64,000 nt of DNA, taken from NCBI GenBank assembly GCA_025361735.1, contig JANYKD010000439.1, positions 1-64,000 of the forward strand, in the 5' to 3' direction. Positions 43,241-46,264 of the stretch are shown here, in pieces; position 1 is the stretch's first letter; every line of letters begins with the position of its first letter. Source of the stretch: Phycisphaerales bacterium. Its GTDB lineage: Bacteria > Planctomycetota > Phycisphaerae > Tepidisphaerales > Tepidisphaeraceae. Both the position numbers and the translations under genes were made by a program. The notes below the pieces were generated by a model, which was not told where the DNA came from, did not search any database, and saw nothing but the letters and a program-made list of their open reading frames with translations.

Positions 43241-44458
43241 TTATGACGTGCCCTGCTTGCGCTTGCGTTTGTGGGGCACGGACGTGTTTGGGGCGGACAG
43301 GGACGATTGAGTCCGTCCGGTGCCGCGAGACTCGCGGGCTTCTAGAATACGGCGGGTCTTGGCGATCTCGTCGGCGAGGAGCTTCTCGTCGGGTAGGGCG
43401 GTGCGGTACTGGCGGACAAGCGTGGGATTGGGCAAACCTTCCAAGGCATAGCGGGCAAGCGACTCGCCCTGGCTCGAACAGAGGATGATGCCGATGGGCG
43501 GATTCTCGCCGGGGCGCGTCCAGTGGGCTTTGGCATAGTTGCAGTAGAGGTGCATCTGCCCGATGTCGGCTGGCGTGAGCGCTGCGAGTTTCAGATCGAA
43601 GATGACCAGACAGCGAAGTACGCGGTGGAAGAAAAGCAGGTCGATGCGATACCAGGTATCGTCGATCCGCAAGCGTCGCTGCCGGCCGACGAACGTCCAG
43701 TCGCCGCCGAGTTCGAGCAGAAAGGACTCAAGGTGATGGATGAGCGCCTCCTCCAAATCGGATTCGGAATATTCATCCTTGAGGTCGAGGAATTCGAGCA
43801 CGAGGGGATCTTTGATCTGCTCTTCGACCGCCATGTAGTCTTGAGGCTTGGCGCGCGTGCCTTTGGTGAGCATGAGAGCCTTGTCGCGCGAGAGCGCGGT
43901 GCGTTCGTAGAACTGCGATCCGATCTGGCGGTCAAGCTGTTTGACAGACCACCCGCCGCGGAGTGCCTCGGTTTCGTAGAACTGGCGGGCGAGGTCGTTC
44001 TTGACGGACATGAGGCGGACGTAGTGGGACCAGGGCAGCGGGAAGACGGCGGACAATTGTCCAGACGGCGTCTGGACAATGTTGAGGTGACCTCCATTGC
44101 CATTGGCCAGAGCTCGTGATCGTGCAGATGGCATCTGCACAATTGAGGAATAGTTCAGATAGAACGCCCGCATCTGAAATAGATTACTGCGGCCGAAACC
44201 CCGTCCGAAGCGCGCGGTCAAATCGATAGCGAGCCGGTCAATCATCTGCTCGCCGTATTCGGCTTTCGCCCGCCCCTGCTGCTCTCCTTCGACGATTCGT
44301 CGGCCAATCTGCCAATACGTCGTTGTGATGACTGCATTGACGGCGCGGGCCGTAGCAAGTCGCGATTGCTCAAGCAGGTTTACCACGTCCGCGAGAATGA
44401 TCTCGTAGGGAGCCGATTTGGCAGATATTGGCACGCTGGGCTTGCGGCTCTTCTTCAA
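43241..44458 (-). CDS. DUF1016/YhcG-family PDDEXK nuclease-domain protein
   Basis: VITTTYWQIGRRIVEGEQQGRAKAEYGEQMIDRLAIDLTARFGRGFGRSNLFQMRAFYL; FPLPWSHYVRLMSV; WTFVGRQRRLRIDDTWYRIDLLFFHRVLRCLVIFDLKL. Confidence 0.93.
   Translation of the reverse strand: MKKSRKPSVPISAKSAPYEIILADVVNLLEQSRLATARAVNAVITTTYWQIGRRIVEGEQQGRAKAEYGEQMIDRLAIDLTARFGRGFGRSNLFQMRAFYLNYSSIVQMPSARSRALANGNGGHLNIVQTPSGQLSAVFPLPWSHYVRLMSVKNDLARQFYETEALRGGWSVKQLDRQIGSQFYERTALSRDKALMLTKGTRAKPQDYMAVEEQIKDPLVLEFLDLKDEYSESDLEEALIHHLESFLLELGGDWTFVGRQRRLRIDDTWYRIDLLFFHRVLRCLVIFDLKLAALTPADIGQMHLYCNYAKAHWTRPGENPPIGIILCSSQGESLARYALEGLPNPTLVRQYRTALPDEKLLADEIAKTRRILEARESRGTGRTQSSLSAPNTSVPHKRKRKQGTS
44056..44143. repeat. Two paralogous palindromic modules within the DUF1016 gene
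   Basis: ATTGTCCAGAC-GGC-GTCTGGACAAT (44056-44080) and ATCGTGCAGAT-GGC-ATCTGCACAAT (44119-44143), 63 nt apart. Confidence 0.85.
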
Positions 44459-46182: not shown

Positions 46183-46264
46183 GAAGGCACGGGCAAGTCC
46201 TCTTGCCCGTGCCTTCTTCTGGGCTGTGACATCGCCGTGACGCATGGGCAAGCGTCCTTGCCCA
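46183..46264. repeat. Two REP-like hairpins sharing GGGCAAG-N4-CTTGCCC
   Basis: GAAGGCACGGGCAAG-TCCT-CTTGCCCGTGCCTTC (46183-46216) and TGGGCAAG-CGTC-CTTGCCCA (46245-46264). Confidence 0.75.

What the first reader, a model, noticed from the sequence alone, without database searches (positions are those of the whole stretch)
44056..44143. Paralogous in-frame palindromes with compensatory base changes inside a DUF1016/YhcG nuclease gene
Seen directly: two 25-nt modules 63 nt (21 codons) apart, ATTGTCCAGACGGCGTCTGGACAAT and ATCGTGCAGATGGCATCTGCACAAT. They differ at positions 3, 6, 11, 15 and 20. Positions 6/20 (C-G versus G-C) and 11/15 (C-G versus T-A) are paired in the hairpin, so four of five differences form two compensatory changes. 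They encode SSIVQMPSARS and NIVQTPSGQLS, in an about 40-aa stretch that looks inserted between the N-terminal DUF1016 region (FQMRAFYL) and the conserved FPLPWSHYVRL. Inference: a structure-preserving palindromic element was inserted or amplified in frame and kept under hairpin selection, perhaps as a variable linker, a nuclease self-target, or a REP-like element tolerated in this gene.
Basis: partly seen in the sequence, partly recalled or inferred. Interest (0 to 1): 0.78.

Follow-up and report, generated by a model that had tools for sequence, protein, structure and literature searches.

The report
Palindromic DNA elements inside YhcG nuclease genes
Genes for the uncharacterised YhcG (DUF1016) nuclease, in E. 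coli and in bacteria of at least eight phyla, carry inside or right beside them a short DNA sequence that mirrors itself; its letters change almost freely but its mirror symmetry is kept and its orientation flips, which points to an unrecognised DNA element that may be the nuclease's own structural target.

Summary
The window gene (43241-44458, -) is a DUF1016_N + YhcG_C PD-(D/E)XK nuclease. Its two palindromes are members of a 27-bp element, RATT-N8-RSY-N8'-AATY: an 11-bp stem with a 3-nt loop, whose stem is hypervariable but complementary. The element sits in a disordered, length-variable linker before the conserved (L/F)xLPW(S/T)H motif. It occurs in about three quarters of 123 full-length non-redundant DUF1016 genes, 1-6 copies each, from at least eight phyla. 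E. coli K-12 yhcG has three, plus non-coding copies 30 bp after yhcG and after gltD. The constraint is at DNA level: purines at wobble sites, ATT instead of ATC, all 11 pairs covarying, one lineage keeping the palindrome in another reading phase, and no G-U bias. Of 191 elements in 1.46 Mb, 190 lie in or within 1.5 kb of a DUF1016 gene, and one lies in a remnant. The loop centre flips C/G more often than any comparable site on the gene tree, implying recurrent inversion. Best reading: a gene-resident hairpin/cruciform acted on by structure, most likely by the encoded, resolvase-like nuclease. That enzyme step is inferred, not shown. No paper found describes it.

The parts
43241..44458 (-). DUF1016_N + YhcG_C PD-(D/E)XK nuclease gene, 405 aa (TTG start as listed)
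   Evidence: ORF; Pfam
43901..44386 (-). DUF1016_N domain, interrupted by the linker with the palindromes
43382..43822 (-). YhcG_C nuclease domain
   Evidence: residues 213-359
44045..44155 (-). length-variable linker between FQMRAFYL and FPLPWSHY; modelled as disordered (residues 108-133 pLDDT <50)
44119..44143 (-). palindromic element A, coding strand ATTGTGCAGATGCCATCTGCACGAT, peptide IVQMPSARS; 10 of 11 stem pairs
44056..44080 (-). palindromic element B, coding strand ATTGTCCAGACGCCGTCTGGACAAT, peptide IVQTPSGQL; 11 of 11 stem pairs

Best explanation
The window carries two copies of a DNA element resident in, or directly beside, YhcG/DUF1016 nuclease genes: RATT-N8-RSY-N8'-AATY, an 11-bp inverted repeat around a 3-nt loop. 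SHOWN: family-wide presence, DNA-level constraint, stem complementarity with free sequence change, cis confinement, copy-number change, and recurrent loop flips and two-sided arm changes. INFERRED: the element acts as a structure (single-strand hairpin or cruciform, i.e. a four-way junction) and is kept and reshaped by the encoded PD-(D/E)XK nuclease, whose domain has been likened to Holliday-junction resolvases and to DUF91. Resolving or reopening the cruciform would flip the loop; repair copying one arm from the other would give coupled arm changes; exchange between modules would change copy number. The purpose for the gene (self-limitation, autoregulation or recombination/transfer of the gene) is not determined. 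The linker tolerates it because it is disordered.
For: 141 non-redundant genes: best palindrome mean 10.9 vs 7.05 in synonymous shuffles. In-phase palindromes of score >=11 in 52% of DUF1016 genes vs 1.3% of 472 other ORFs in the same loci. 147 modules: offsets 2-12 are 82-99% complementary, offsets 1 and >=13 uncorrelated. Covariation score 0.843 vs 0.158 shuffled, all 11 pairs with two-sided changes. DNA level: wobble purines 147/147 and 139/147 vs 49%, Ile ATT 98/103 vs 28%, K/E/Q codons ending in A 124/124; another reading phase in L173/L185. G-T 16 vs A-C 24 mismatches. Confinement. Non-coding copies. Flips: centre C/G changes 22 times on the gene tree vs mean 5.9 (max 15) for other C/G columns and max 20 for transition columns. 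Two-sided arm changes without observed intermediates in E. coli. Resolvase-like nuclease domain: PMC1189080; weak NucS/EndoMS fold match. Other phyla.
Against: No experiment links the protein to the element. Flips and coupled changes could come from replication template switching alone. About a quarter of full-length genes lack a strong internal element although most keep the active-site motif, so it is not essential for the enzyme. Truncated relatives, a gene remnant (L135) and a yhcG-deleted strain (L280) still carry good palindromes. The structure model is of low confidence (mean pLDDT 63.5) and no Foldseek match passed 0.001.
Confidence: 0.4

Rival explanations
1. Mutational self-maintenance: the palindrome has no function. 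Template switching within the hairpin during replication keeps copying one arm onto the other and flipping the loop, and module copies slip or recombine.
For: Centre flips and two-sided arm changes without observed intermediates are what template switching produces; copies persist in a pseudogene remnant and next to a deleted gene.
Against: It does not explain why the element is confined to one gene family in at least eight phyla, always at the same linker or in the flank, nor the constant RATT/RSY/AATY frame at silent sites. Comparable palindromes are rare in 472 neighbouring ORFs.
Confidence: 0.25
2. Sequence-specific self-recognition: each DUF1016 protein, as a dimer, binds the palindrome in its own gene like an operator or restriction target, and arms co-evolve with the protein.
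For: Dyad symmetry with strand-symmetric degenerate positions (R..Y at +-1 and +-13); modules in one gene resemble each other more than between genes (core 0.79 vs 0.48); elements are confined in cis.
Against: Modules in one gene often have different arms (window, E. coli, six in L219); E. coli strains swap both arms in otherwise near-identical loci; within-gene likeness may be simple duplication.
Confidence: 0.2
3. mRNA hairpins: the stem-loops act in yhcG mRNA, controlling translation, decay or termination.
For: Perfect 11-bp stem-loops would form in mRNA as well; copies lie 30-40 bp downstream of the stop codon in E. coli and L201.
Against: No excess of G-U over A-C mismatches (16 vs 24); loop flips keep only strand-symmetric properties; no Rfam family; the E. 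coli 3' copy is not called a terminator.
Confidence: 0.1
4. Selfish in-frame mobile palindrome of the RPE/REP type that happened to enter DUF1016 genes.
For: In-frame, tolerated in a disordered linker, variable copy number; an extra copy near gltD in K-12.
Against: No dispersal: 1-3 places per genome in 39 genomes, essentially all DUF1016 (off-locus hits resolved); 1-4 places per genome in 5360 E. coli genomes, at the yhcG locus in the rows inspected.
Confidence: 0.05

Closest known systems
Rickettsia/Wolbachia palindromic elements (RPE, WPE)
   Same: Palindromic DNA in frame inside protein-coding genes, tolerated by the protein.
   Different: RPEs are 100-150 nt sequence families dispersed in many unrelated genes and spacers (as described in PMC4316617). 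Here: 27 bp, one gene family across phyla, hypervariable sequence with conserved structure.
PARCEL (palindromic amphipathic repeat coding elements; PMC2996958)
   Same: Repeated coding sequence with dyad symmetry, horizontally distributed.
   Different: PARCELs are 25-residue tandem repeats (DUF285/TIGR02167) in surface-type ORFs with imperfect palindromes of unclear meaning; that paper does not mention DUF1016 or nucleases.
REP elements with RAYT (TnpA-REP) genes
   Same: A nuclease-type gene with associated palindromes in cis (knowledge, not tested here).
   Different: REPs are extragenic and dispersed, with a Y1 HUH enzyme; here intragenic, not dispersed, PD-(D/E)XK enzyme.
Integron attC sites
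   Same: Hairpin whose structure is conserved while its sequence varies (knowledge).
   Different: attC sites belong to mobile cassettes acted on by a tyrosine recombinase; no such cassette arrangement was seen here.

Membership tests
DUF1016/YhcG PD-(D/E)XK nuclease (the host gene) | DUF1016_N and YhcG_C domains above curated cut-offs | tested here: met
   144 and 178.5 bits vs cut-offs 32.8 and 32.5
DUF1016/YhcG PD-(D/E)XK nuclease (the host gene) | nuclease activity | not testable with these tools
   active-site-like motif present in most family members
Rickettsia-type palindromic element (RPE/WPE) | in-frame palindrome inside coding genes | tested here: met
Rickettsia-type palindromic element (RPE/WPE) | dispersed through many unrelated genes and spacers of a genome | tested here: not met
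REP/RAYT | many extragenic copies genome-wide | tested here: not met
REP/RAYT | associated Y1 HUH (TnpA-REP) enzyme | tested here: not met
   the gene is PD-(D/E)XK
PARCEL | 25-residue tandem repeat of DUF285/TIGR02167 type | tested here: not met
   only PF17761 and PF06250 found; modules are 9 residues, spacing variable
mRNA hairpin / known RNA family | Rfam match or G-U tolerance on the coding strand | tested here: not met
   no match; G-T 16 vs A-C 24
cruciform substrate of the encoded nuclease | structure-specific binding or cutting by YhcG | not testable with these tools
   needs protein and DNA in vitro

The most novel reading that the evidence does not exclude
YhcG/DUF1016 nucleases form a self-referential system: the gene carries a hypervariable hairpin whose structure, not sequence, is the substrate of its own junction-resolving nuclease, which flips, copies and multiplies it, a new class of gene-resident recombination element used for self-control or spread of the gene.
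Probability: 0.3. Interest if true: 0.95.

Novelty: categorically new. Interest (0 to 1): 0.85.

Why it matters
DUF1016/YhcG is widespread, is present in E. coli K-12, and has no known function; in the open-access library searched only ten papers name DUF1016, and none reports the palindromes. A conserved DNA structure embedded in the gene itself gives a concrete substrate to test, in a laboratory strain. It is also a rare clear case of two codes in one stretch of DNA: a protein sequence and a strand-symmetric structure whose letters are free but whose pairing is not, with evidence of recurrent inversion. If the nuclease does this, it is a new kind of gene-resident recombination element; if replication does it, it is a natural reporter for template switching in bacteria.

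Tried and rejected
REP-like dispersal was tested in 39 whole genomes, 1.46 Mb of loci and 5426 E. coli genomes, and rejected. An mRNA hairpin was tested by mismatch asymmetry and Rfam and disfavoured. A chance or codon effect was tested by synonymous shuffles, neighbouring-ORF controls and local recoding, and rejected. A link to the Neisseria uptake sequence (GTCTG core) was dropped because other subfamilies have unrelated cores. The solved-structure search found nothing: DciF E = 0.77 with one sequence, gone with a profile. Two viral-contig scans with paralogues found no relatives. Active-site integrity does not clearly separate genes with and without elements (84/90 vs 27/33).

Full report
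CHECK. Four of the five differences are two compensatory changes; the fifth breaks one pair. The gene's best palindrome is reached by 2 of 1000 synonymous shuffles, and local recoding gives p = 5e-5 and p = 0.002 for the two modules. The exact pattern occurs nowhere else in the 7.5-Mb genome.

FAMILY. Eighty homologues from Beta- and Gammaproteobacteria, Myxococcota, Acidobacteriota and Planctomycetota nearly all carry one to three modules of form ATT-NNN-CAGAC-NNN-GTCTG-NNN-AAT in the same reading frame. An alignment of 24 is about 60% identical overall; the linker between FQMRxFY and FPLPWSxY is the one internal segment with large length variation, and it is modelled as disordered in the window protein. 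Other DUF1016 subfamilies in the same genome and phylum have different palindromes at the same place, for example GAATTCTCTACACGCTGTGTAGAGAATTC and CAATTGTGCCACAACCTGTGGCACAATTG. E. coli K-12 yhcG itself has three. Plasmid-borne genes of Fusobacteriota, Cyanobacteriota, Bacteroidota and Actinomycetota have them too, with two of seven examined lacking one.

STATISTICS. In 141 non-redundant genes the best palindrome averages 10.9 against 7.05 in shuffles. Of 100 strong palindromes, 85 are odd-length and centred on a first codon position. An in-phase palindrome of score >=11 occurs in 52% of these genes and 1.3% of 472 other ORFs in the same loci. Among full-length genes 90 of 123 have an element with at least 10 of 11 pairs. 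The modules were selected for being palindromic, so per-module p-values across the family are ascertained; the gene-level and control-ORF comparisons are not.

ANATOMY. In 147 distinct modules, partners at offsets 2-12 from the centre are complementary in 82-99% of cases; offset 1 and offsets of 13 or more show no correlation. The element is therefore an 11-bp stem with a 3-nt loop, ending in ATT/AAT. There are 89 distinct arms. On 43 diverse sequences all 11 pairs show two-sided changes, 98.3% of cells pair, and the covariation score is 0.843 against 0.158 shuffled and at most 0.152 for slid structures. The tool's caveat on relatedness applies, but sliding removes the signal.

DNA LEVEL. The silent positions at offsets 1 and 13 are purine in 147/147 and 139/147 cases, against 49% for wobble sites in these genes. 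The first Ile codon is ATT in 98/103 cases against 28% elsewhere, and the Lys/Glu/Gln codon always ends in A. Two genes, L173 and L185, keep the palindrome in another reading phase and hence with another peptide. Mismatches are not biased to G-U on the coding strand (16 vs 24 A-C). E. coli has a perfect copy 30 bp after the yhcG stop codon and K-12 another just after gltD, both outside any annotated protein.

CONFINEMENT. Whole-genome searches of 39 carriers found at most three places each, with no control hits. The off-locus hits examined were second DUF1016 genes or a remnant, apart from one non-palindromic chance match (L136) and one hit not assigned to an ORF (L109). In 1.46 Mb of loci, 181 of 191 elements lie inside DUF1016 ORFs, 9 within 1.5 kb of one, and 1 in a remnant. 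Near-copies of one E. coli element occur one to four times per genome in 5360 genomes; the rows inspected are at this locus.

DYNAMICS. E. coli strains differ in module number: O157 and O111 strains lack modules 2 and 3. The non-coding 3' copy has three forms among the strains fetched: CTGCAGAC-AGT, the same arms with ACT, and CTCCAGAC-ACT with both arms changed; no one-sided intermediate was seen. Across 370 close, non-independent pairs with identical arms, loops are the same in 290, ACT/AGT in 76, other in 4. On a tree of 86 genes built from sequence outside the linker, the loop centre changes C/G 22 times, against 5.9 on average (maximum 15) for eight other C/G columns and at most 20 for 65 transition columns. 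Loop changes fall from 34 to 17 when a loop and its reverse complement count as one. I read this as recurrent inversion. Parsimony on a FastTree tree is rough, and only eight C/G control columns were available.

MECHANISM. What all elements share is complementarity plus a strand-symmetric frame, not a sequence; that favours recognition of, or processing through, a hairpin or cruciform. Kosinski et al. (PMC1189080) placed the YhcG domain near YraN-like Holliday-junction resolvases and DUF91; the model's weak fold matches are NucS/EndoMS, which is suggestive only. My best explanation is that the encoded nuclease acts on the cruciform in cis. The strongest rival is template switching without function; it explains flips and coupling but not the confinement to one gene family or the constant silent-site frame.

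NOVELTY. Searches for DUF1016 or yhcG with palindromes found no description. Protein-coding palindromes are known as RPE, WPE and PARCEL, but each fails a defining test here. Only open-access papers were searched, so an older or subscription-only report cannot be excluded.

Noticed in passing
L241; nearest neighbours of the DUF1016 gene in 20 or so of L024-L103: DUF1016 genes often sit in type I restriction-modification operons: 6 of 36 nearest neighbours match Methylase_S and 3 match N6_Mtase; L241 lies directly after an hsdR-like ORF.
   Followed up: partly
L137:632-658 (after gltD in E. coli K-12): A perfect element AATTCGCCAGACTGTGTCTGGCGAATC lies after gltD, where the gltF-yhcF block separates gltD from yhcG; in L146, where yhcG directly follows gltD, it is absent.
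   Followed up: partly
L140:3380-3410 and L141:2985-3010: In E. coli B yhcG is truncated exactly at the end of module 3, and in strain F5656C1 an IS1 boundary lies at the left edge of module 3; the palindromes may be rearrangement hot spots.
   Followed up: no
window 46183-46216: A 15-bp-arm inverted repeat GAAGGCACGGGCAAGTCCTCTTGCCCGTGCCTTC, probably a terminator between genes.
   Followed up: no
genomes of the window's phylum, e.g. G110, G100, G128: Up to nine DUF1016_N matches per genome; 50 of 199 genomes of the phylum have at least one.
   Followed up: no
L071 vs L069: One homologue seems to have lost exactly one unit by fusing the left part of module 1 to the right part of module 2.
   Followed up: no
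L180, end of the ORF (codon 292 on): A 21-bp-arm even palindrome of a different type near the end of a DUF1016 gene.
   Followed up: no
Wolbachia phage WO records AB036665, AB036666, MN180248: Phage WO carries YhcG homologues; not examined for elements.
   Followed up: no
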